Part shown: positions 2,585 through 20,046 of the stretch, piece after piece
Position numbering within the stretch: position 1 is the stretch's first letter
How the letters are laid out: every line of letters starts with the position of its first letter
Position numbers and translations under genes: made by a program
Notes under the pieces: model-generated
Told to the model about the DNA's origin: nothing
The model's database searches: none
Seen by the model: the letters and a program-made list of their open reading frames with translations, nothing else
Assembly: GCA_002389265.1 (NCBI GenBank)
Contig: DGOD01000119.1
Location: forward strand, 1 to 20,978
Source: Gammaproteobacteria bacterium UBA4475
GTDB lineage: Bacteria; Pseudomonadota; Gammaproteobacteria; Pseudomonadales; Azotimanducaceae
DNA length: 20,978 nucleotides
Direction of reading: 5' to 3'

Positions 2585-3067
2585 GGCCATTAAGAGTTTC
2601 ATTAATTATTATTTTTAATTCATGAGTATTCATTGTTCAACGCCACTAGATTGCCTAGAATAGTGGATGCAATTTACGCCTTCTTTTCATGCGCAGCACT
2701 CGCCAATGGGCGCGCATAGCTCATTGACAATCGGCATGGCCGGGGCGCCTGGAGGCATGGCAATGGAGCGAGGTAGTCCCGCAGACAGTGCGGTTTTTAT
2801 TGGCTATAAAACCGCTTCAGGTCGCATTCATTCGATGCCCTTTTATCAGGGGGGTGATAACGATGCGGAGCGTTACAGCCAATCGAGCGCCGAAGGCGGA
2901 ACTAGTGCCTGCGTATTTGATGAGGCTGTGTTAGGGCGTGATTACTGCTGGGCGACGGATGCGTTTCAAGCGCCTGGCGTGACGCTCAACGTGCTGACTC
3001 CCTTTTTCTCGATTCCTGATCCTCTGGTTGCAGATCAGTCGACGCTTAAGTTTGCCAGTTGTCCTGC
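2585..3067 (+). repeat. Direct repeat copy 2: upstream region and 5' end of intact GH52 gene
   Basis: This is the full-length partner of 39-353. It includes 82 bases before the ATG and the first 134 codons of the intact GH52 gene, with the 168 bases that are missing from copy 1. Recombination between the two copies would remove the GH10 gene and leave a single GH52 gene. Confidence 0.9.
2597..2627 (+). promoter_or_regulatory. AT-rich upstream element, copy 2
   Basis: The core reads TTTCATTAATT followed by ATTATTTTTAATTCA and TGAGT, 40 bases before the GH52 ATG. The same words (TTTCATTAATT, TATTTTTAA, TCA, TGAGTAT) recur in order at 13111-13147 in the regulator/pilin divergent gap. Conservation against copy 1 and reuse at a distant gene suggest a promoter or regulator-binding site. 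No standard -35/-10 pair with good spacing is evident. Confidence 0.45.
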
Positions 3068-4799
3068 GACGTTCTTGAGCTTGATGATTGAGAATGATAG
3101 CGACGAGGACTGGGATGGATTTTTTGCATTAAAAAATGATAAATATTGGTCACCCTTGTCGAGTAGAGGCGAGGGGCAGTTACGCGGAGCTGTGAGCCGA
3201 GATTCTATGGGTTTTGCAACGGATGCTGAGGTTGAGGAATTTTGTGATTTTAGTGTCGATCGCGCGCTGGATGCGCAACATACGACACCCAATTTTTTAT
3301 TGGGTCCCGTGGCTGGCGTGCGCTTCAAAGTGGCTGCTGGCGAGCGCCGAGAAGTTCGGATTACACTCGGTTATTATGTATCAGGTGTTGCGACTTTTAA
3401 TCATACAGCGAGTTATTGGTATACGCAGTATTTTGATAACATTGAGTCTGTTTTCTCATATGCGGTAGAGCATTTTGATGCGTACGCCAAAGAGGCACAG
3501 ATTCGTGATGCTGAGCTACTGGCATCTGGATTAACGGATGCACAGCAATTCATGATCGCGCATTCCACGCGCAGTTATTATGGATCAACGCAGTGGCTCG
3601 TCGATCCCGATGGAAAGCCTTTGTGGGTGGTAAATGAAGGTGAGTATTTGATGATGAATACGCTTGATTTGACCGTCGATATGCTGTTCTTCGAATTACG
3701 TTTTAACCCCTGGACAGTACGCAATGTATTGAACCAATTCGTAAGCCGATATTCGTATGAGGATGAAATATTTTCTCCCGAGGCACCAGAGACTCTGTTG
3801 CCCGGCGGAATTTCCTTCGCGCATGACATGGGTGTAGCCAATCACTTTAGTCCGGAGGGCTATTCTAGTTATGAGTGTAGTGGTTTGGACCGGCTCTGCT
3901 TTTCATACATGACCTGCGAGCAGTTGACCAACTGGGTGCTGTGCGCGGGCGTGTATGTAGCCAAGACTAAGGATCTGGAGTTCGCGAGAAAGCACACGGA
4001 TGTGTTAACGCGCTGCTTTGATAGTTTGTTGCGTCGTGACCATCCAGAGCCTGAGCACCGCAATGGTCTGATGAGCTACGAAAGCTCGCGGACTAAGGGC
4101 GGCGGTGAGATCACGACTTACGACTCACTAGACCATTCCCTCGGGCAGGCGCGTGACAATATTTACCTCGGCGGAAAATGCTGGGCGTCTTACTTAGCCC
4201 TGGAATACATTTTCAATGCCTTAGGTGATTCTCAGCTCGCTGAATCGTGCCATGCTGCTGCGTTGCGTTGTAGTGAAACCTTGGCAAATGCTTTTAGTGA
4301 ATCAGACGGCTTTATACCTGCTGTGTTAGATGGCGAAAATAGCAGCGCCATTATCCCCGCCGCGGAAGCGTTAGTTTATCCGTGGGAGATGGGCATTCGA
4401 GATGCGATCGCCGAGGATGGAGCTTACGGACCTTATATTGGTGTGTTGAAGCGCCATTTGATTGGCATTTTGAAGCCCGGAATTTGCCTCTATGCCGATG
4501 GTGCATGGAAGTTGTCCAGTAGTGCCGATAATTCTTGGATGAGTAAAATTTGCCTGAATCAGTATGTGGTTCGTGAAATATTAGGCATTAGCTATGAGGG
4601 TGAGGACCGTGCGGATGCAGCCCATGTCCAATGGCAGGTCGAAGGGTCGAAATTTTATGCATGCTCGGATCAGTTTACTTCCGGCAAGCCGATTGGTAGC
4701 TTGTATTATCCGCGCATTGTGACGAGTTTACTGTGGATGTCAGAAAGTCGGTTCGCTTGCGCAACAGAGGTTGCTCAAGTCGCTACGACCACTCAATAA
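2667..4799 (+). CDS. Beta-xylosidase, GH52
   Basis: The 710-aa protein is predicted to release xylose from the non-reducing ends of xylo-oligosaccharides. It matches the usual GH52 length of about 700 aa. Visible family landmarks are the N-terminal HxxHSPxGAxxSxTxG, RSYYGSTQW, WVVNEGEYLMMNTLDLTVD with the probable nucleophile E324, and EITTYDSLDHSLGQARDN. That last segment holds the catalytic acid/base aspartate, probably D486 or the nearby D489. Further matches are GISFAHDMGVANHFS, the CEQLTNWVLCAGVY segment and ADAAHVQW. It has no signal peptide, consistent with a cytoplasmic enzyme acting on imported oligosaccharides made by the upstream GH10. It is more AT-rich than the GH10 gene. The start is fixed by the family's N-terminal motif and by the remnant copy at 121. 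Confidence 0.95.
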   Translation: MQFTPSFHAQHSPMGAHSSLTIGMAGAPGGMAMERGSPADSAVFIGYKTASGRIHSMPFYQGGDNDAERYSQSSAEGGTSACVFDEAVLGRDYCWATDAFQAPGVTLNVLTPFFSIPDPLVADQSTLKFASCPATFLSLMIENDSDEDWDGFFALKNDKYWSPLSSRGEGQLRGAVSRDSMGFATDAEVEEFCDFSVDRALDAQHTTPNFLLGPVAGVRFKVAAGERREVRITLGYYVSGVATFNHTASYWYTQYFDNIESVFSYAVEHFDAYAKEAQIRDAELLASGLTDAQQFMIAHSTRSYYGSTQWLVDPDGKPLWVVNEGEYLMMNTLDLTVDMLFFELRFNPWTVRNVLNQFVSRYSYEDEIFSPEAPETLLPGGISFAHDMGVANHFSPEGYSSYECSGLDRLCFSYMTCEQLTNWVLCAGVYVAKTKDLEFARKHTDVLTRCFDSLLRRDHPEPEHRNGLMSYESSRTKGGGEITTYDSLDHSLGQARDNIYLGGKCWASYLALEYIFNALGDSQLAESCHAAALRCSETLANAFSESDGFIPAVLDGENSSAIIPAAEALVYPWEMGIRDAIAEDGAYGPYIGVLKRHLIGILKPGICLYADGAWKLSSSADNSWMSKICLNQYVVREILGISYEGEDRADAAHVQWQVEGSKFYACSDQFTSGKPIGSLYYPRIVTSLLWMSESRFACATEVAQVATTTQ

Positions 4800-8488: not shown

Positions 8489-8520
8489 CGTAGATTTAAA
8501 ACAGCCTACGACAATTTTTT
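8489..8520 (+). terminator. Weak terminator-like hairpin
   Basis: CGTAG (8489-8493) and CTACG (8506-8510) form a 5-bp stem with a 12-base loop, followed by acaa and then six T. The stem is short and the loop long, so termination, if any, would be partial; read-through into the next sulfatase is plausible. Confidence 0.25.
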
Positions 8521-8543: not shown

Positions 8544-11500
8544 ATGAAACAAATCTTCACAATTGCTTTCGGCTCTAGCCGAGTGTGCCAGCTATTACTG
8601 AGCGCTTTATTTCTGTTTTGTGCTCAAGCGACGGTCTGTATCGCGCAGCCTAATGTGATCCTGATTATATGCGATGATTTGAACGACTCGGTCGAAGGTA
8701 TGGGAGGTCACTCACAAGCCTATACCCCAAATATTGAGCGTCTCATGGACCAGGGTGTTCGCTTTACCAACGCCCATTGTAACGCACCGATATGTGGGCC
8801 TTCGCGGGCGAGCTTGTGGAGCGGTCTATTGCCTAGCACCAGTGGCTACTATGGGTTTGACCAGCAGTCTAACGACTGGCGGGACTTTGAGATCTTAGGC
8901 GATGCAGTCACCTTGATGGAGCATTTCAAAGCGAATAGCTACACAGTTTGGGGCAGCGGTAAAATCTTCCATAATGGGCATGACGACAACACTGTCTTCA
9001 GCGTGATTCCAGCGGATGATGGCGCCGGGCCATCTGACTTCGGACCTTTCCCTTGGAACGGAGAGGTCCCGCTGACAGGCAACTACACCGGCGAACAGCA
9101 TCCCGATATGCCCACAAGTAATTGGGGCTATTATCCCAGCACGACCTCATTAGACAATAATCCCGGAGATACCCTCGGCTATGAAAATTATCAGTGGGCT
9201 TTAAAAGATGGGCCATTTACATACACAAGTGAATCAGGGGCTTTAGGTGTCAATGGAGATGTTCGAGACCTCATGCCTGACGAGATTAGTGCACAATGGG
9301 CTGAGGGCAAGTTAGGGCAGGCCCATAGCAACCCTTTTCTCATGGTAGTCGGCATGAATAGACCGCACGCACCGTTCTATGCCCCGAAGGAGTTCTTCGA
9401 TCTCTTCAGAGATGCACAAGGGAATAATACGGTCACTTTGCCGCCGCACCTTCCAAATCAGGACGACTTAGCCGATCTTCCTGAAATCGCAATAGGCAGA
9501 CCCTCTGGGGACCTGCTTAATCGGGGCTACCAGAGCGGCATAGATAAGTATAAGCAAGACTATGGCAACGGTGCGAATGAGTGGTGGCTTAATTTTGTCC
9601 AAGGATACCTCGCCTGCGTGGCTTTCGCGGACCATCAAGTAGGTGTCATTTGGGATGCTTTGCAGGCCAGTGATTACGCTAGCAATACAATCGTGATTGT
9701 AACCAGCGACCATGGCTATCATCTGGGCGAGAAGGATCACTCCTCCAAAACGACGCCGTGGGAAGAAACGACCCGAGTGCCGCTAGTCATCTACACCCCA
9801 GAGATGCGCCCAGGTGGCAGCCTTGAATCTGTGGCGGGGCTTGAGTGTCGTGCACCCGTGTCGTTAATCGATCTCTACCCGACCTTGAATGCGCTCTGCG
9901 ACATGCCTGCCGATCCTAACGGAGGAGCTGGCAAGAATAATACGGTTCTAGATGGCAACGATTTGACTCCACTCCTAGAGGCGCCTTTGGCAGGGCAGTG
10001 GGATGGGCCGAGGGTGTCGCTCTCACACCTCCATAACGCTCGAGTGGACTGGCCGGAAGATACGAAGAGCCCATGGGCGCTCAATCACCACGCGGTCCGC
10101 TCTGAGAATTATCGCTATATCCGTTACAGCGATGGATCTGAAGAACTCTACGATCATTCCTTAGATCCGAATAATTTGCCCAACCAGGTAGATCCGAATG
10201 AATGGACCAATCAGGCGGGCAATCCGGCCTATTCACCCGCGAAAGCTGTGATGAAACAGCGACTTTTCGAATCACTCGGCATGGCTAATGCAGACAATCT
10301 GGTAGTCAACGGCAGCTTCGAAAGTGACCTGAGTAACTGGGTGGTCGGTGGCTCGGCAGGGGCCACACTCAATGCAACAGATTCATTAGCAGGCGATCGC
10401 TCCGCATTGGTCACGATTAGTGGCACAGTAAGCAACGAGGCATTCGTGGACTACCAGTTTAATGATGCCGACGGAACAGCACTTACTGAGCAATCCAATG
10501 AGGGGAGTGATGCTGGCTCGTGGAGCTTTGGCTCGTTTCGAGTACAATCTGGCGCGCTCAATGTAGGCTACACCCAGGAATTTAAGTCTCCAAAGGCAGA
10601 TGATAACTTAGCGGCTAGTGGGAACACAAATCCAGTCTATCGAACATACACCCTGGACTCTGCCATGACTACTGGCGATTTTGACTTCGTCGTCGATTTT
10701 GCTGAATGGGACCTTCGCCGAAATTGGGATAGCTCTGCCAGCTCGGCAGCAGGTAAAGGGATGCAGTTTTCGCTTATGGGGAACGGCATTGTCAATGTGC
10801 GCTTCGAGACTTACGCAACTACTGGCTTCCGCGCCAATGTCTCGGGGCTGGAGGCTGGCAATGCCTATGGTAATACTTTTGACTTCCCGTTAAACCGCCG
10901 CGAGCTGAATGGAGGTTTGCTACGAATTACTGGAAATCTCGATAGCGGCACTTGGGCGGCTTCCGCAAATGACGGGGAGGGCGGTGCCTACCAGACGATT
11001 GTGAGTGGGTCAGGCCTGACTAGCATTAGTGGCATTCGCTTTAATACCCTCTCCCCATCTGATGGATCTTGGGGCGGAGCGGGTGCAGGCACCGCGACTG
11101 ATCCAACAGTTGATGGCACCTCTGGCGACTACATGCGAATAGATAATATCACCTTATCAAATACGATTACTGCCTTAGATGGGGAACTCGAGCAGAACAT
11201 GCTAGCAGTGCTTGAGCCCGGTAAAAGCTATCATGTTTCTGCGTGGGCGAGAAGTAGCAGCTCGGGCGCAGTTCAACTTGAGATGAGAGAAACGAGTGGC
11301 TCTGGCCAAGCGACCGATGTTGCCGTCGCTAGCGTCGCGGCAAACGACACTGAGTTCCTGCTGATCGAGGGCGACTATACGGTCCCTGATAACCTTACGG
11401 GACTCTCACTGATCGCCCGCGGCGCAGGTTTTTCCCTCGATCATGTGCAGGTTTACGAATACCAAACTCTTAACATGGTTGCATCCGTGTTGATCGATGA

Positions 11501-11696
11501 TGGAGATGGTTCGATCTCGCTCGGCTGGAACGCGGAATTGGGTGTTTCCTATCGGCTAGAACAGTCGTTGAACCTAGCCAATGATTGGGTGGTACTACAA
11601 AGTGATTTGACTGCGGATAAATCCAATATGATCTGGACGCTTACAGAGGACCCGACTCTCAGCCGTGCTTTTTGGAGGATAATTAAAAACCCGTAG
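8544..11696 (+). CDS. Secreted sulfatase with a nested PEP-CTERM-protein-like domain in a CBM4/9-like module
   Basis: I chose ATG 8544 (1050 aa) because it gives a clean signal peptide (about residues 1-35); an upstream in-frame TTG at 8520 only adds polar residues. The sulfatase domain spans about 36-575: ICDDLND, then the C-G-P-S-R maturation motif (C84, predicted formylglycine), MNRPHAPFYAPKEFFDLF, TSDHGYHLGEKDHSSK and WEETTRVPLVIYTP. It is iduronate-2-sulfatase-like, family S1. From residue 585 a CBM4/9-like fold begins (NLVVNGSFESDLSNW). It is interrupted at about 635-873 by a domain clearly related to the PEP-CTERM protein at 19162 (VDYQFND, VDFAEWDLRRNWD, GSWGGAGAGTATD). The fold then resumes at 880-971 (LEQNMLAVLEPGKSYHVSAW ... 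SLDHVQVYE). The tail module ends AFWRIIKNP. The substrate is not deducible. Confidence 0.9.
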   Translation: MKQIFTIAFGSSRVCQLLLSALFLFCAQATVCIAQPNVILIICDDLNDSVEGMGGHSQAYTPNIERLMDQGVRFTNAHCNAPICGPSRASLWSGLLPSTSGYYGFDQQSNDWRDFEILGDAVTLMEHFKANSYTVWGSGKIFHNGHDDNTVFSVIPADDGAGPSDFGPFPWNGEVPLTGNYTGEQHPDMPTSNWGYYPSTTSLDNNPGDTLGYENYQWALKDGPFTYTSESGALGVNGDVRDLMPDEISAQWAEGKLGQAHSNPFLMVVGMNRPHAPFYAPKEFFDLFRDAQGNNTVTLPPHLPNQDDLADLPEIAIGRPSGDLLNRGYQSGIDKYKQDYGNGANEWWLNFVQGYLACVAFADHQVGVIWDALQASDYASNTIVIVTSDHGYHLGEKDHSSKTTPWEETTRVPLVIYTPEMRPGGSLESVAGLECRAPVSLIDLYPTLNALCDMPADPNGGAGKNNTVLDGNDLTPLLEAPLAGQWDGPRVSLSHLHNARVDWPEDTKSPWALNHHAVRSENYRYIRYSDGSEELYDHSLDPNNLPNQVDPNEWTNQAGNPAYSPAKAVMKQRLFESLGMANADNLVVNGSFESDLSNWVVGGSAGATLNATDSLAGDRSALVTISGTVSNEAFVDYQFNDADGTALTEQSNEGSDAGSWSFGSFRVQSGALNVGYTQEFKSPKADDNLAASGNTNPVYRTYTLDSAMTTGDFDFVVDFAEWDLRRNWDSSASSAAGKGMQFSLMGNGIVNVRFETYATTGFRANVSGLEAGNAYGNTFDFPLNRRELNGGLLRITGNLDSGTWAASANDGEGGAYQTIVSGSGLTSISGIRFNTLSPSDGSWGGAGAGTATDPTVDGTSGDYMRIDNITLSNTITALDGELEQNMLAVLEPGKSYHVSAWARSSSSGAVQLEMRETSGSGQATDVAVASVAANDTEFLLIEGDYTVPDNLTGLSLIARGAGFSLDHVQVYEYQTLNMVASVLIDDGDGSISLGWNAELGVSYRLEQSLNLANDWVVLQSDLTADKSNMIWTLTEDPTLSRAFWRIIKNP

Positions 11697-11812: not shown

Positions 11813-12967
11813 TCAAGCATTCGATGGCAATTTAAGGCGTTTGCGATAATTTCCCGGGGTCGTCCCATGTTCAGCCCGAAAGCTATTGATCAAAGAATTG
11901 ACTGAGTAGTAGCCACAGTTTTTAGCGATTTCATCCAAGTTGGCCTCTGTCGTTTGCAGCAAGTGTGCCACCGCATGCGTGCGTTGATGGCGTATTTCTT
12001 GCCCAGGTGATTTACTGTAGCAGTTGGCAAATGCCTTTTGCAGACCTTGCTGAGTGACGCCCATGGCCTCTGCGACATCCGTTGCCTGTATACCATGATA
12101 GAAATTATCTTTGATCCAGTGCAGTGCATTAGCTACTAATGGGTTTGCGACTGCGTAGCAATCTGTACTGAGCCGTGAGACGACACCGCTTGGCGGGTGA
12201 CGTAGGATGGAATCGGAGCTTCTACTAGAGTTAGAATCCAGTAATTTTTGCAATGTTCTTGCGGCGGTCAGGCCGAGTCCTTCCTGGTCGCTATCAACAC
12301 TACTGAGTCCGACGCTCAGACCTTGGTTGACTAAATCATCATTGTCGACCCCCAGCACCGCGATGTTTTCTGGCACGCGCAGATTGTTTTTGAGGCATAT
12401 AGAGATCATCTCAGCTGCCGCGGTATCTTGGAAAGCAAAGAAACCCACCGAGAGTTCTTCCATTTTACGGCCCTGCGCTTGAGCGAGGTCATGCAATTCC
12501 TGAATTACTTTGCTTTCAGTCCTACCCGCGGAATCAAACACGGTGACTTTGCCGCCATCCGCTTCCATGTGGTTGATAAACGCTTGCAGACGCTCCTCAT
12601 ACATTTTGATTCCATCGGCCGTTAAGGCAAAGACCTGTTTATAACCATGGTCCCTGAAATGTTCGGCAGCTAGTCGGCCGATTGCTTCATTGTCAGTCAC
12701 GACCCTGGGAATCGATAGATTGTGGTCGCCGAGCCCGAGGTCGACCAAGGGAATTTTGTGTGTGCGAAAATATTCGAGTGTTTGTGTGCATTGCAGCAGA
12801 GCAATACAGCCGTCTCCTTGCCAATTGTTTAGAATGCCCTCGTTGTGGGTAAAGCTCTTCGGGCAATTCAGTTGCCAACCGTTTTCACGCGCAATTTGAG
12901 CGACTCCTCGGTGGATGCGGTAGTCATACCATTCAAGCAGCAGCAGGATGTGTTTACGTCGTAACAT
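11813..12967 (-). CDS. XylR-type transcriptional regulator (LacI-like sensor + AraC HTH)
   Basis: The 384-aa protein joins a periplasmic-binding-protein-like sugar sensor (about residues 5-265) to an AraC-family DNA-binding domain (about 277-378). The sensor starts RRKHILLLLEWYDYRIHRGV and contains IPRVVTDNEAIGRLAAEHFRD and ENIAVLGVDNDDL. The DNA-binding part has two helix-turn-helix units, DVAEAMGVTQQGLQKAF and EIAKNCGYYSVNSLINSF. This order and length are those of E. coli XylR, which activates xylose genes. There is no N-terminal LacI-type HTH. By family and by its position next to xylan genes, it probably senses xylose or a related sugar and activates this locus. It converges on the sulfatase at 8544, with 116 bp and no strong terminator between them, and diverges from the pilin-like gene at 13309. 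No clear ribosome binding site precedes the ATG. Confidence 0.92.
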   Translation of the reverse strand: MLRRKHILLLLEWYDYRIHRGVAQIARENGWQLNCPKSFTHNEGILNNWQGDGCIALLQCTQTLEYFRTHKIPLVDLGLGDHNLSIPRVVTDNEAIGRLAAEHFRDHGYKQVFALTADGIKMYEERLQAFINHMEADGGKVTVFDSAGRTESKVIQELHDLAQAQGRKMEELSVGFFAFQDTAAAEMISICLKNNLRVPENIAVLGVDNDDLVNQGLSVGLSSVDSDQEGLGLTAARTLQKLLDSNSSRSSDSILRHPPSGVVSRLSTDCYAVANPLVANALHWIKDNFYHGIQATDVAEAMGVTQQGLQKAFANCYSKSPGQEIRHQRTHAVAHLLQTTEANLDEIAKNCGYYSVNSLINSFRAEHGTTPGNYRKRLKLPSNA

Positions 12968-13308: not shown

Positions 13309-16300
13309 ATGAAAAATCGTTCTGCACCAACTCATGGTTTTGCGCTGGTTATCGCGCTGTCCCTGATGGCCTTCGTACTACTGCTAATTCTGAGCATCAC
13401 CACGCTGGTGCGGGTCGAAACGCAGAGTTCGAATATTCAGCTTGCTCAGCTTGAGGCACGCATGAATGCCCAGCTCGGGGCAATGATCGCGCTGGGGGAC
13501 TTACAGCGCTACACAGGGCCCGATCAGCGGGTGACGGGAACGGGTGAGTTAATCGATACAACCGTGGACTCTAAAAAACAACATACAGCGGTTTGGGATG
13601 CCACGGCAGCAGCAGGTGAGGATCCGATTAGTTGGTTAGTCTCCAAGTCACAACAAGCGCCATTTAATGAAGCAGAAGCTACCGATTCGGAATGGCCGAT
13701 TTTAGTTTCTGAGAAAACTAGTAATGGAAACTTTTTAGCCGAAGCGGTTCGCGCAGAGCCAGTGCCTATTACGGGGCAGAACAACGAAAATACTGGAGAA
13801 TACGCATGGTGGGTCGGCGATGAGGGCGTCAAGGCAAAGCTGACCCTAGTCGAAGACGAGAACTTAATTGCAGGTGATTCTACAGCGCGCCTTCGCACGG
13901 CGACACGGAGTGGGGTGGAAGCATTGGATTCAATTGGCACAACGTATTCATATGTGGATAGCCCCAATTTTCGCAGTGATCTATCCAAGGCGATCAATGC
14001 GGAGCAACTTTCCTCTTCTGTGTCTAACCTCAAAGCTCACTCGCATGACCTCACCACTTACAGCCAATCGCTGCTAGTGGATGTGCAAAGGGGAGGCTTA
14101 AAAGAGGATCTGACTTACATTTTGAATAAAGGGGTTAACGCGGGATCAATATTTCAAAATATTAAAGACCTGGATGATGAAAAGTATGGGAGCTTGGTGA
14201 TACCAGATGCCTACAATCGCATCACATGGGAGCAATTAGCGTCCTATCATGATTTGGCAAAAGAGACAGGTACCTCCTCCATTAGTGCAAGGGCTCAAAC
14301 AAAAGAGAGCCATGGGGTATTTCCAATCCTAACTATGCTAAGTATTAATTTCGCAGTATTACTTGATAGCAATTACACCAACTCAACACAAGCCCCAGCC
14401 GATAGGGAATACCAGGTAAATCACCACCTACGCCCTTGGTTCGTTCTGGCAAATCCATACAATGTGACTTTAGAGGTGGAAGATTATCGTATTCGTTTAC
14501 AATCGAAATATACTCGTGTAGAAATAGAAACGGATGATCTGGAACCATTGTATCCACGGATATTGTTAAAAGATATATTTAAACATATGGTATTTACTGT
14601 GCCATCGGTTTCATTGAAACCTGGAGAAGCAAAGATCTTTACGCTCAGTTATGATAACGATTCTGCATATGGCTATACTTTTAACAGTTCAAATTATACA
14701 ACGGATTATGACTGTCAGTTACAGTTTGGAGGTAATCAAATTTTGGGTGCGAATACTGAACAAGAATTTCTTTTTGAGGAAGGTTGGGACGCTGGTTTTT
14801 CTTCGATCCGCTTAGTGCCTAATGGAAACCCGCAAACCCTTAACGGCACTCTGCTCGAAGATGGCACTCGTGTAAAACCACTTAATTGGAAATTATCGAC
14901 CGGTGGTGGGACGTGGGTGCGCACTACGCTACCTGATGATGCCCAAGAAAAGCTTGTCCAAACCATAGGACCCGCGGGATTTAACGACGGTCCTAGCACA
15001 CAGCATCTCGGGCATTGGTTGATCAATGATTTGCCGCAAGATGTGTATTCGCGAAGTTGGCACGCTACGAAAAGTAATCCTATCAATACTGATTGGAAAA
15101 AGAATAACAATTCACCGGGTGCGAGTTCTTTTATGTTGTTTTTAAACGGAGGTATTAGTGAACCAGTAGCTAATACATATTCAACTAATAACGGCGGGTG
15201 GTTGACTGATCTAAACTTCCGTAGCCCACAACAGGTAAAGATGAAGCAGACGTCATTAGCTTCAGCCAATTATCGCACATACTTCATTACTTTTGGTGCG
15301 CAGTTTTCTCACACAATATCCGATACGAATACTCTTGGAAGCGATCCATCTTCATTCCCTTGGGGAGCGGGCTTTGTCGCGTACTCTAAGGATCCGGTAG
15401 ATTCCCGCAAGACTGTATTGTTTGACCTGCCGCGTAGCGATGCCGAGTCGGGGATGTCATCAATTGGACAGTTGCAACATTTTAATGCGGGCGGTTATGC
15501 TGATACTCCTTCCGATTGGCAGGAGGATTTAACGAGTGACCTACTCGTAAATGTAGAAACGGCTTACGCACCAGCCTATACTGTTGGCAATAGTTATGTG
15601 ACTCCATTCGTCCCTCGTGATAAATTCTATCAAGCAGTTGGGACTAATTCTTTCTTAGACCTTTCGTATGTAATTAATGACATACTATTTGATCGTTATT
15701 TATTTTCCTCGGTGCCATTATCTGGTAATATCGAAAGCCTCACTAACACCCGATTAGCGCCATTTGAGCCACTCGATGGTACAAGCTTTCAAAATGTTAG
15801 CACGACGAAGGTGGCTGAAGACTTTTATATTGATGGGGGGTTTAATGTGAATTCAACATCCGTAGAAGCATGGCACGCTTTTCTTAGTAGTTTTAGAGGC
15901 GTCGCATTTGGAGGACTTGATTCTGCAGATGCCTATGGTGTATTTCCACGTAGCCTCTATCAAATTGAAGAATATGTAGATGGCTCAACAAATGATTTGG
16001 GACGCTTTTGGACAGGTTGGCGGCACATTCAAGAATCGGCTCTCAATGATCTTGCGAGAGCTATTGTCGAAGAAGTGAAGCTGAGGGGGCCATTTCTTAG
16101 TATGGCGGATTTTGTTAATAGAGACTTAATGAACGCTGAGACGAATGGATATGATACCAGAAGCTCTGGCGCCTTGCAGTCAGCGCTAGACCGGACCCAA
16201 AATTTCGAATACTTTACACTTAAACCAAGTTTAGCACTGGATGAAGCCAAGGCGACTGGTAAAGATTTATTTGATTATCAGGAAACCCAGAACCTTGGAG

Positions 16301-16653
16301 GGGGAAAAATAATTGATGCTGACGGTTCACTCCTAGCTCCAGCGGCAACGACAGCAGGAATCCCAGGGTGGGTTCTTCAGGGAGATTTGCTGCAGTCACT
16401 GGCTCCCGCGATGTCAGTACGATCAGACACTTTTCTGGTGCGTAGTTATGGGAGTGCCAGCAATGCGTTCGATAGTCAGGATACTGCCGAGTCTTATTGC
16501 GAATTAGTGGTTCAACGTATTCCTGAGTATGTTGATTCCGCACAAGATCGGCCCAGTGTGGTTACAGATGATTTGCAGGGTACCACGAATCAGTTGATGG
16601 GACGTCGTTACAAGATTATTAGCCTGCGCTACCTTACTGCGGCAGAATTATGA
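13309..16653 (+). CDS. Giant pilin-like membrane-anchored protein, Verru_Chthon cassette protein A-like
   Basis: The 1114-aa protein begins with a type IV pilin/PilX-like leader: a short basic start, THG, then the hydrophobic helix FALVIALSLMAFVLLLILSI and TTLVRVETQ. A glycine precedes the helix, as at prepilin peptidase sites, but the usual Glu at mature position 5 is absent, as in PilX-type minor pilins. The rest is a long, poorly recognisable exported region with DQRVTG and WWVGDEGVKAKL near its start and repeated mentions of Tyr/Asn-rich beta segments. Size and leader resemble Verru_Chthon cassette protein A; this family call is from memory of the pattern. The other cassette members (B, C, D) are not here. 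Its stop overlaps the next start (ATGA), so the two genes are translationally coupled. It is AT-rich relative to the sulfatase that follows. The role is unknown; cell-surface or secretion machinery is a guess. Confidence 0.6.
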   Translation: MKNRSAPTHGFALVIALSLMAFVLLLILSITTLVRVETQSSNIQLAQLEARMNAQLGAMIALGDLQRYTGPDQRVTGTGELIDTTVDSKKQHTAVWDATAAAGEDPISWLVSKSQQAPFNEAEATDSEWPILVSEKTSNGNFLAEAVRAEPVPITGQNNENTGEYAWWVGDEGVKAKLTLVEDENLIAGDSTARLRTATRSGVEALDSIGTTYSYVDSPNFRSDLSKAINAEQLSSSVSNLKAHSHDLTTYSQSLLVDVQRGGLKEDLTYILNKGVNAGSIFQNIKDLDDEKYGSLVIPDAYNRITWEQLASYHDLAKETGTSSISARAQTKESHGVFPILTMLSINFAVLLDSNYTNSTQAPADREYQVNHHLRPWFVLANPYNVTLEVEDYRIRLQSKYTRVEIETDDLEPLYPRILLKDIFKHMVFTVPSVSLKPGEAKIFTLSYDNDSAYGYTFNSSNYTTDYDCQLQFGGNQILGANTEQEFLFEEGWDAGFSSIRLVPNGNPQTLNGTLLEDGTRVKPLNWKLSTGGGTWVRTTLPDDAQEKLVQTIGPAGFNDGPSTQHLGHWLINDLPQDVYSRSWHATKSNPINTDWKKNNNSPGASSFMLFLNGGISEPVANTYSTNNGGWLTDLNFRSPQQVKMKQTSLASANYRTYFITFGAQFSHTISDTNTLGSDPSSFPWGAGFVAYSKDPVDSRKTVLFDLPRSDAESGMSSIGQLQHFNAGGYADTPSDWQEDLTSDLLVNVETAYAPAYTVGNSYVTPFVPRDKFYQAVGTNSFLDLSYVINDILFDRYLFSSVPLSGNIESLTNTRLAPFEPLDGTSFQNVSTTKVAEDFYIDGGFNVNSTSVEAWHAFLSSFRGVAFGGLDSADAYGVFPRSLYQIEEYVDGSTNDLGRFWTGWRHIQESALNDLARAIVEEVKLRGPFLSMADFVNRDLMNAETNGYDTRSSGALQSALDRTQNFEYFTLKPSLALDEAKATGKDLFDYQETQNLGGGKIIDADGSLLAPAATTAGIPGWVLQGDLLQSLAPAMSVRSDTFLVRSYGSASNAFDSQDTAESYCELVVQRIPEYVDSAQDRPSVVTDDLQGTTNQLMGRRYKIISLRYLTAAEL

Positions 16654-17363
16654 ATTATTCACACCTAAAATGGAGCATGAAAAGCTCTACTATATTATTT
16701 TTTATTTTGGGTATCTGTATTCAGGCGGTACAGGCAATTGAAGTTCGTTTCATTGCAGTAGAAAAAGGCCTAAAGGATCTGTATTATCTCAATGCCGAGG
16801 GAGATTACACAGAAACTAATTTACCTCCTTACGAGGTTAGCGAGCCCTTTAATGTGCGACTGTCGGAAGGGAAAGTGCGCATTTTTCGTCAGACGCTCAT
16901 TGAGGATCGATTAGTTTATGAAACTATTGCTGAGGCTGATCCAGGTTCTTTACGGAAAGCTCTAGGGGTGATTCACAATCAAGCACAAGTCTGGCGCTTA
17001 GGACTTTTTGATGATAGCGCAAAGGCATTCCCCGGTGGAACCTTTAGAATTATTAATTTATTACCAGTGGCTATTGCGACTCGGATCGGCACGACTCCAA
17101 TTAAAACAAAGCCTTATGCCGCAGATATTGTTTCTGTTGTACCACCGGGGCCTCGCCCTGTCGTAGGCATTGTTGCGGCTTACCAGAAAGAGGGCAATTG
17201 GGTCCCTTTTTTCGACAAACCGGTCGGAGTTTTACCGAATGCTCGAGTTACTGGTATTGCTACTGTAACTCGCGATGGCATGGACCTGGCATATGGTACG
17301 GACTTAGAAGACCTTAGCGGGGAGCCTAGGGTGGACTACTTTCTCCTGAATGATCGCCCATAG
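16650..17363 (+). CDS. Small secreted protein coupled to the pilin-like gene; function unknown
   Basis: The reading frame gives 237 aa from the ATG that overlaps the preceding stop (ATGA, 16650-16653). A second start at 16677 (MKSSTILFFILGICIQAVQA) gives a more regular signal peptide and 228 aa. The mature part begins IEVRFIAVEKGLKDLYYLN and is predicted to be mostly beta-strand, with FRIINLLPVAIATRIG and PPGPRPVVGIVAAYQKEGNW. I recognise no enzyme motif. Overlap with the giant pilin-like gene implies that the two products act together, perhaps as an exported partner or an assembly factor. A short hairpin overlaps its stop codon. Real gene: very likely; function: not assignable. Confidence 0.8.
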   Translation: MNYSHLKWSMKSSTILFFILGICIQAVQAIEVRFIAVEKGLKDLYYLNAEGDYTETNLPPYEVSEPFNVRLSEGKVRIFRQTLIEDRLVYETIAEADPGSLRKALGVIHNQAQVWRLGLFDDSAKAFPGGTFRIINLLPVAIATRIGTTPIKTKPYAADIVSVVPPGPRPVVGIVAAYQKEGNWVPFFDKPVGVLPNARVTGIATVTRDGMDLAYGTDLEDLSGEPRVDYFLLNDRP

Positions 17364-19161: not shown

Positions 19162-20046
19162 ATGAATATTTTATTTAAAATTTTATTGCCCGCAGTTTGC
19201 GTGGCCAACCTAGCTACAGCCCAAGCGCTAGTGGACTATCAATTTAACGATACTAACGGCGGCGATGTAAATGATCCTACCGAGGTGGCTAATTCTGGTA
19301 GCGAATCTGACGCAGCGTGGAATTTCGGAGTTGGTAAAGTGCAGAATGGTAATCTCAATTATGGTTACACCTCGTCATTCAAGTTTAATCAGGTAGATCT
19401 CAACTCAGGTACAACTGCTAACCGCAAGCTACAGTTTGCTGATAGCCTGACTACGTCGGATATGACGCAATATAGCTTTACCGTCGATTTTGCCAAGTGG
19501 GATTTACGTCAGTTTTGGGACCCGAATAACGTCTCCGATACCAATAAGGGGATTCAGATATCCTTGGATGGCAATGGCGGTAGTGCAACGTTAGGCTTTA
19601 CGACCAATGCTGGCGGTGGCTTTCGTGCATTCAGCCAAGGCGCTGGTTCGACCTTTACACAGGTTAATGGTGGTGCCTTCACCACTCAGCTAAATAGGTT
19701 TGAAGCTCTTGGAGGTGTCTTACAAATCAATGGTGACTTGAGCACAGGATTGTGGTCTGCTCAAGCGAAAGACGGAGAAGCTGGCGCTGAATGGCAGACG
19801 CTTGGTAACGGCACCGGATTAACAACCATTGCCTCGATCACTCTAGCTGCTAGAACGCCAACCGCCGGTTCGTGGGGTGGATCCAGCTCGGGTGCAGCTA
19901 CAGATGCTACTGTGAGTGGCACAGCCGGTGATTATTTGATGATTGATAGTTTGGACTTAACAGCAGTGCCTGAGCCTAGCTCGTATGCACTACTCGCTGG
20001 CATGCTCGCTCTAGCCAGTAGAGTGATGGTGCGTCGCCGCCAGTAA
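19162..20046 (+). CDS. PEP-CTERM surface protein
   Basis: The 294-aa protein has a signal peptide (about residues 1-22, ending ATAQA) and a single beta-rich domain of about 244 residues. At residues 269-294 it ends with a PEP-CTERM sorting signal: VPEPSSYALLAG, a hydrophobic helix, and the basic tail RVMVRRRQ. In known systems an exosortase recognises this tail and anchors or processes the protein at the cell surface; no exosortase gene is in the window. The mature domain is a homologue of the domain inserted in the sulfatase at 8544, sharing VDYQFND, VDFAKWDLR..WD, LNRFE, DGEAGAEWQT, GSWGG and ATDATVSGTAGDY. A strong terminator follows directly, so it forms a single-gene unit. The role is unknown; glycan binding is plausible because the related domain sits in a carbohydrate sulfatase. 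Confidence 0.88.
   Translation: MNILFKILLPAVCVANLATAQALVDYQFNDTNGGDVNDPTEVANSGSESDAAWNFGVGKVQNGNLNYGYTSSFKFNQVDLNSGTTANRKLQFADSLTTSDMTQYSFTVDFAKWDLRQFWDPNNVSDTNKGIQISLDGNGGSATLGFTTNAGGGFRAFSQGAGSTFTQVNGGAFTTQLNRFEALGGVLQINGDLSTGLWSAQAKDGEAGAEWQTLGNGTGLTTIASITLAARTPTAGSWGGSSSGAATDATVSGTAGDYLMIDSLDLTAVPEPSSYALLAGMLALASRVMVRRRQ

What the first reader, a model, noticed from the sequence alone, without database searches (positions are those of the whole stretch)
10296..11460. PEP-CTERM-protein domain nested inside a carbohydrate-binding-like module of a sulfatase
In the sulfatase at 8544, a CBM4/9-like domain starts (NLVVNGSFESDLSNW, residue 585), is broken after the ALVTISG strand, and resumes 240 residues later with LEPGKSYHVSAWAR. 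The insert (10446-11162) matches the whole mature domain of the PEP-CTERM protein encoded at 19231-19964. Shared blocks in order include VDYQFND, VDFA.WDLR..WD, GFRA, LNR.E, DGE.GA..QT, GSWGG and ATD.TV.GT.GDY..ID. The insert lacks the PEP-CTERM tail. A domain used as an exosortase-sorted surface protein and also as a module inserted in an enzyme implies a free-standing, probably ligand-binding fold that has moved within one locus. I know of no described family of this kind.
Basis: partly seen in the sequence, partly recalled or inferred. Interest (0 to 1): 0.75.

Follow-up and report, generated by a model that had tools for sequence, protein, structure and literature searches.

The report
Lectin-like domain nested in sulfatase CBM
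In some Verrucomicrobia, a sugar-desulfating enzyme carries a whole lectin-like domain plugged into the predicted sugar-binding loop of its own carbohydrate-binding module; the same undescribed domain also exists as a probable cell-surface protein, and at least once the copy inside the enzyme was swapped for a copy of the surface-protein type.

Summary
In the sulfatase at 8544-11696 a CBM_4_9-type module (PF02018) is split by about 245 residues homologous to the mature part of the PEP-CTERM protein at 19162-20046 (43% identity over 263 residues, E 9e-48). Leaving the insert out restores one continuous PF02018 match (65.1 bits, against 23.1 and 39.1 for the halves). Eleven related sulfatases lack the insert; in 11 of 11 the site is an R-[TDN]-x(2,3)-W-[NK]-G loop that aligns with the Trp53 loop of solved CBM22 chains.

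The insert matches no Pfam or NCBIfam family but its model, like that of the free protein, has the ConA/L-type-lectin fold. By the catalytic domain a single gain suffices. In five sulfatases (P0030-P0034; catalytic domain 87-90% identical to the window's) the insert is only 45-48% like the window's, yet 78-88% like free proteins. So the cassette was later replaced, probably by gene conversion.

Distant copies of the domain form arrays and are themselves split by insertions. Sugar binding is inferred.

The parts
8544..11696 (+). sulfatase with nested domain, 1050 aa from ATG (a TTG start at 8520 is also possible)
   Evidence: PF00884 5.6e-41; C-x-P-S-R motif; 34 proteins cover the whole CBM-plus-insert region, 32 of them with PF00884 precomputed
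8649..9896 (+). sulfatase catalytic domain
   Evidence: PF00884 match, converted to window coordinates
10296..10415 (+). N-terminal part of the CBM_4_9-type module (PF02018 positions 2-42)
   Evidence: 23.1 bits alone
10443..11165 (+). inserted lectin-like domain
   Evidence: profile match 1-245; 43% identity to the PEP-CTERM protein; ConA-like fold
11193..11414 (+). C-terminal part of the CBM_4_9-type module (PF02018 positions 53-128)
   Evidence: 39.1 bits alone; 65.1 bits when joined to the N-terminal part
11460..11693 (+). C-terminal tail module, apparently exchanged between sulfatases
   Evidence: tail identity out of step with the rest of the protein
19162..20046 (+). PEP-CTERM protein, 294 aa, free-standing form of the domain
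   Evidence: PF07589 over cut-off; 114 homologues, 102 of them with PEP in the last 40 residues; model pLDDT 88.6
19228..19968 (+). mature lectin-like domain of the PEP-CTERM protein
   Evidence: profile match 1-245
19963..20040 (+). PEP-CTERM sorting signal
   Evidence: PF07589 27.2 bits, TIGR02595 18.7 bits
416..2392 (+). GH10 xylanase (context)
   Evidence: PF00331 5.9e-55
2667..4799 (+). GH52-family protein, a beta-xylosidase-type family (function recalled; context)
   Evidence: PF03512 7.9e-145
11813..12967 (-). XylR-like AraC-family regulator (context)
   Evidence: PF13377, PF12833; PBP1_XylR below its cut-off

Best explanation
A free-standing lectin-like (ConA-type jelly-roll) domain of PEP-CTERM proteins was captured, once, into the predicted ligand-binding loop of a CBM_4_9/CBM22-like module of a secreted sulfatase in Opitutales-type Verrucomicrobiota. 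The CBM keeps its two halves as a scaffold but loses the R-T-x-W-N-G loop that aligns with the Trp53 loop of CBM22, so the inserted domain probably takes over as the sugar-recognising part of the enzyme. In at least one later lineage (P0030-P0034) the inserted copy was replaced by a copy of the PEP-CTERM protein type, while the linkers, both CBM halves and the catalytic domain stayed; gene conversion between the two genes is the likeliest route. Working model: the PEP-CTERM form holds a polysaccharide at the cell surface and the enzyme-borne form brings the sulfatase to the same or a related glycan, perhaps a sulfated xylan, since the locus carries GH10, GH52 and a XylR-like regulator. Shown by calls: nested architecture, empty site, same predicted fold, a history that needs one gain and at least one replacement. 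Inferred: direction of capture, gene conversion as the mechanism, sugar binding, the substrate and the display/targeting roles.
Against: No DNA of a genome with both a swapped sulfatase and its donor-type PEP-CTERM gene was reached, so gene conversion within one genome is inferred from proteins alone. One replacement event suffices: P0030-P0034 as one clade is not rejected by catalytic (p-AU 0.115) or domain data (0.425). P0029, whose insert is 90% like free P0119, shows no drop confined to the insert when compared with the window, and holding its insert with the main insert clade gives a tree no worse than the free one; it may be an early branch near the original capture. The catalytic tree alone does not fix the root between insert-bearing and empty proteins. 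The structure model does not confirm that the CBM halves fold together (pLDDT under 50 for the N half). No ligand or binding residues are known for the domain. P0107 and P0110 are fusions of the two genes that may be assembly errors.
Confidence: 0.7

Rival explanations
1. The domain entered the CBM loop two or more times independently, each time from a different PEP-CTERM gene, with no replacement of an existing insert.
For: Inserts fall in four places of the domain tree; one clade is rejected.
Against: The 33 insert-bearing sulfatases tested are one side of a single branch by catalytic domain, support 100; P0030-P0034 lie inside the others (p-AU 0.0146, group named after seeing the tree); the left linker SNGTVSGG is shared with 8 unswapped sulfatases, is in 0 of 11 empty-site proteins, and among the 114 homologues of the free protein is found only in the fusion P0110.
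Confidence: 0.12
2. The swapped sulfatases and gene fusions are metagenome assembly chimeras.
For: P0107 and P0110 join the two genes in a single switch, on contigs of 4608 and 1384 bases; L038 joins part of the domain to an unrelated repeat at a contig start.
Against: P0030-P0034 need two switches within about 730 bases between insert types only 45-48% identical in protein, which leaves little shared sequence for an assembler to cross over in (inference); they come from several sources (ncbi, nr, ena, jgi), with up to 23 member sequences and contigs up to 33 kb.
Confidence: 0.06
3. The insert is not a sugar binder but a structural spacer or protein-protein contact that docks the secreted sulfatase onto surface proteins carrying the same domain.
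For: The same domain is present in PEP-CTERM proteins and in the enzyme; it forms arrays in larger proteins; no ligand residues are known.
Against: The fold is that of L-type lectins, GH43 sandwich domains and GH16 enzymes; the insert sits at a predicted CBM ligand loop in a xylan-type locus.
Confidence: 0.25
4. The insert was ancestral and the eleven empty-site sulfatases lost it.
For: The catalytic tree alone does not place the root between the two groups.
Against: The empty-site proteins carry the R-T-x-W-N-G loop found in solved CBM22 modules, which a clean loss would not recreate.
Confidence: 0.04

Closest known systems
Xyn10C-type GH10 xylanases with two CBM4 modules inserted in the catalytic domain (PMC7848910, passages read)
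   Same: Carbohydrate-recognition modules nested in one polypeptide of a xylan locus; the host domain stays functional.
   Different: There CBMs are inserted into an enzyme fold; here a lectin-like domain is inserted into a CBM, at its predicted ligand loop, and the inserted copy has been exchanged.
CE20 esterases with a beta-sandwich ancillary domain splitting the SGNH domain (PMC12313940, passages read)
   Same: A beta-sandwich domain inserted through linkers into a discontinuous host domain of a carbohydrate-active enzyme.
   Different: The host is catalytic, the ancillary domain helps form the substrate-binding region, and the passages read describe no free-standing surface-protein form.
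CBM22 / CBM_4_9 modules (PF02018; 1dyo, 1h6x, 4xup)
   Same: The joined halves match PF02018 at 65 bits; an empty-site orthologue hits CBM22 chains.
   Different: The W-bearing loop is gone and replaced by a domain of about 245 residues.
L-type lectins and ConA-like domains (ERGIC-53, VIP36, GH43 sandwich domain)
   Different: About 10% identity; no Pfam or NCBIfam hit for the insert.
PEP-CTERM/exosortase proteins (PMC1569441, abstract and outline read)
   Same: Free form has a PEP-CTERM tail over the cut-off.
   Different: The enzyme-borne form has no such tail; the assigned genome has one such protein over the cut-off and no exosortase match.

Membership tests
CBM_4_9 (PF02018) / CBM22-like module | Match over most of the profile above the gathering score | tested here: met
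   Joined halves 65.1 bits, positions 2-128 of 136, cut-off 25.9
CBM_4_9 (PF02018) / CBM22-like module | Aromatic-bearing R-T-x-W-N-G loop (Trp53 of CBM22; its role in binding is recalled, not from a call) | tested here: not met
   No W in either linker in 35 of 35 insert-bearing rows; W in 11 of 11 empty-site rows
CBM_4_9 (PF02018) / CBM22-like module | The two halves fold into one jelly roll | tested here: inconclusive
   N half pLDDT under 50
PEP-CTERM protein (19162-20046) | PEP motif, hydrophobic helix and basic cluster at the C terminus | tested here: met
   PF07589 27.2 bits; helix 274-293; sequence ends RRRQ
PEP-CTERM protein (19162-20046) | Exosortase (PF09721) in the same genome | tested here: inconclusive
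   No match in the assigned genome, whose contig is probably misbinned; present in 13 of 13 domain-bearing genomes of another family group
L-type lectin / ConA-like superfamily (insert and free domain) | Fold | tested here: met
L-type lectin / ConA-like superfamily (insert and free domain) | Membership by sequence in a described family | tested here: inconclusive
   No Pfam (E up to 1) or NCBIfam (E up to 0.1) match for the insert
L-type lectin / ConA-like superfamily (insert and free domain) | Sugar binding | not testable with these tools
   Needs protein
Sulfatase (formylglycine type) | PF00884 and C-x-P-S-R | tested here: met
   PF00884 5.6e-41; motif in 32 of 35 insert-bearing rows; the other 3 (P0002, P0017, P0034) lack that N-terminal stretch
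Gene conversion | A homologous tract replaced with flanks intact | tested here: met
   P0030-P0034: 19-70% identity from about residue 631 to 870, 67-100% outside; region table
Gene conversion | Donor copy in the same genome | not tested
   No DNA of such a genome was reached

The most novel reading that the evidence does not exclude
An undescribed verrucomicrobial lectin family behaves as an exchangeable nested cassette: it plugs into the ligand loop of an enzyme's CBM, is repeatedly overwritten from the surface-displayed PEP-CTERM copy so that enzyme and cell surface keep recognising the same changing glycan, and accepts nested copies of itself at a fixed loop, giving Russian-doll surface proteins.
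Probability: 0.25. Interest if true: 0.75.

Novelty: new variant of a known kind. Interest (0 to 1): 0.5.

Why it matters
Nested domains in carbohydrate-active enzymes are known; in the two cases seen in print here a binding or ancillary module sits in a catalytic domain. Here a lectin-like domain stands in place of the predicted ligand loop of a binding module, empty-site relatives survive, and one lineage shows the inserted copy exchanged with flanks and linkers kept. That offers a natural, directly testable example of retargeting an enzyme by swapping a nested cassette, and of a surface protein and a secreted enzyme sharing one recognition fold. It also supplies an unnamed domain family (245 profile positions) for databases.

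Tried and rejected
Chance or low-complexity similarity: rejected. Recent copying inside the window: rejected, because the two copies are 44% identical and lie in different clades. 'The domain is unique to this genome', as searches suggested: rejected, since 13 of 43 genomes of another family group carry it. One search is also weak because at most three candidates per genome were scored. 'Several independent replacements': I first read four places in the tree as several events; allow a single replacement plus an early-branching P0029, so only one is claimed. Finding the donor and the swapped sulfatase in one genome: not reached. Searches for a domain inserted into a CBM, or for gene conversion of such a domain, showed no such case in their listings (titles and abstract starts seen, some with 33 or 37 hits of which 15 were listed); the library holds open-licence PubMed Central papers only. 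For the role of CBM22 Trp53 I found no passage to cite (PMC8280721, passages, treats other residues), so it is recalled.

Rows dropped: 12 fragments or chimeras of the 114 proteins; stand-alone rows 92% or more identical to a kept row before the tree (57 kept of 103); P0002 and P0017 (truncated) before the catalytic tree; P0029 left uncounted in the test. Of 950 proteins, 120 were listed; the 11 listed insert-free rows with PF02018 were used.

Full report
What is there. The window holds a xylan-type locus, in order: GH10, GH52, a sulfatase, the sulfatase in question, a XylR-like regulator on the other strand, two proteins without a Pfam match, a third sulfatase, the PEP-CTERM protein and an esterase-type hydrolase. 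The sulfatase at 8544-11696 has PF00884 and the C-x-P-S-R motif. Pfam finds CBM_4_9 in two stretches. Tested apart, the N part scores 23.1 bits (profile 2-42) and the C part 39.1 bits (53-128). With the insert left out the joined stretch scores 65.1 bits over 2-128, while the insert itself has no Pfam match at E up to 1 and no NCBIfam match at E up to 0.1. The insert aligns with nearly the whole mature PEP-CTERM protein: 43% identity, E 9e-48.

The empty site. Searching with the catalytic part alone gave 950 proteins (120 listed). Eleven listed ones of 742-776 aa (P0150-P0158, P0160, P0161) carry an uninterrupted CBM at 63-67% catalytic identity. The insert sits where they read R-[TDN]-x(2,3)-W-[NK]-G; the W is there in 11 of 11 and in neither linker of 35 of 35 insert-bearing rows. 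An empty-site CBM finds CBM22 chains in the PDB (4xup, 1h6x, 1h6y, 1dyo), and its R-T..W-N-G aligns with theirs, the W being chain position 53. That Trp53 is a key xylan-binding residue of that CBM22 is recalled, not from a paper read here.

Distribution. Scoring residues 585-972 gave 34 proteins, 34 of 34 covering the whole query and with PF02018 precomputed (only the 7995 candidates sharing most words were scored). The free protein gave 114, 102 of them with PEP in the last 40 residues; the other 12 have altered motifs or are fragments or fusions. Among the few carriers with a name are Opitutales, Opitutae, Coraliomargaritaceae, Lentimonas and Puniceicoccales. In the named genome collection three loci were found, and 13 of 43 genomes in the family of one of them carry the domain. 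L065 shows the insert-bearing sulfatase in a locus that, judged by likeness and not by a family scan, matches the window's (GH52-like, XylR-like, second sulfatase) on a 73 kb contig. L006 likewise shows a free copy beside the XylR-like gene, with GH52-like and GH10-like genes nearby.

History. On the catalytic domain, 33 insert rows and 11 empty rows are two sides of one branch, support 100, which fits one gain; loss is unlikely because the empty proteins keep the CBM22-type loop. On the domain itself, 35 inserts and 57 free proteins intermix: one clade of inserts is rejected (p-AU 6e-43). P0030-P0034 are 87-90% (catalytic), 67-74% (CBM-N, within the 58-100% of the other rows), 87-92% (CBM-C) and 79-96% (tail) identical to the window but 45-48% in the insert, and their inserts are 78-88% identical to free proteins. 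Against a chosen unswapped relative, identity is 19-70% in steps from residue 631 to 870 and 67-100% outside. Keeping them outside the other insert-bearing sulfatases is disfavoured (p-AU 0.0146; group named after the tree was seen). The left linker SNGTVSGG occurs in 5 of 5, in 8 unswapped sulfatases and in 0 of 11 empty-site proteins; among the 114 homologues of the free protein only the fusion P0110 has it. The right linker NTISTSDGG occurs in 3 of 5 and in unswapped P0005, with close variants in P0033 and P0034. This is replacement of an existing insert. One event suffices. P0029, whose insert is 90% like free P0119, shows no insert-only drop against the window and is either a second replacement or an early branch close to the capture.

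Sorting. The assigned genome has a single PEP-CTERM hit over the cut-off and no exosortase match; in a sample of its relatives, itself included, 16 of 38 have one. Window pieces correlate less with 19 other stretches of that genome (0.58-0.65) than those stretches do with one another (0.66-0.79). In one search, 18 of 19 stretches were closer to the rest of their own genome than to G579, but only 1 of 6 window pieces was; G579's sampled contigs differ in GC (0.34 against 0.49), so this is only a hint. The contig is probably misbinned or recently acquired. In the family group that carries the domain, 13 of 13 domain-bearing genomes have an exosortase.

The domain as host. In L066, L067, L068 and L075, copies of the domain are themselves split at about profile positions 116-130. 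Joined halves score 101-121 bits as one match, against 47-71 for single halves; two mismatched joins each gave two separate matches. L069 and L070 show four matches in a row. This supports a family that tolerates nesting, but these relatives are distant and were only partly followed.

Mechanism and limits. Most likely the insert is the sugar-recognising element of the sulfatase, with the old CBM as scaffold, and shares a ligand class with the surface protein. That is inference from fold, site and locus. Gene conversion is inferred from proteins, since no DNA from a genome with both partners was reached. Comparison with print: CBM4 modules inserted in GH10 (PMC7848910, passages) and a beta-sandwich inserted in CE20 (PMC12313940, passages) are the nearest cases seen; no title or abstract start in the listings describes a domain nested in a CBM's ligand loop.

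Noticed in passing
L066:12841-17772 (-), L067:4595-9508 (+), L068:12459-17423 (-), L075:7720-12888 (+): Giant proteins (1637-1722 aa, stop to stop) in which copies of the lectin-like domain are split at about profile positions 116-130 by other copies or, in L075, by a helical-looking stretch; joined halves match as one domain.
   Followed up: partly
L069:6568-9885 (+), L070:6056-9355 (-): Proteins of about 1100 aa with four consecutive matches to the domain and no PEP-CTERM tail in the last 32 residues shown.
   Followed up: no
window 11460-11693: The sulfatase C-terminal tail seems exchanged separately: P0022-P0029 are 76-86% identical to the window in the catalytic domain but 38-44% in the tail, and empty-site P0150/P0151 are 66% in the catalytic domain but 78-83% in the tail.
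   Followed up: partly
window 1-20978: The contig's tetranucleotide use departs from 19 other stretches of its assigned genome, which has no exosortase match and no second PEP-CTERM hit over the cut-off; it is probably misbinned or recently acquired.
   Followed up: partly
P0107, P0110: Fusions of the two genes: PEP-CTERM-type signal peptide and domain followed by the sulfatase CBM-C half and tail (P0107), and CBM-N half with domain ending in a PEP-CTERM tail (P0110). Crossover products or assembly errors.
   Followed up: partly
L073:8660-10903 (-): The insert-bearing sulfatase gene is interrupted within the nested domain on a 358 kb contig.
   Followed up: no
L038 and L076:1-1118: At a contig start the second half of the domain is joined to a repeat of another kind resembling bacterial surface-protein repeats (recalled, no family call); may be an assembly join.
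   Followed up: no
window 13309-16653 and 16650-17363: A 1114-aa protein with a weak, below-cut-off N-terminal match to Verru_Chthon cassette protein A (TIGR02600) and a 237-aa partner without family; judged by eye, a similar pair lies in the matching locus L065.
   Followed up: no
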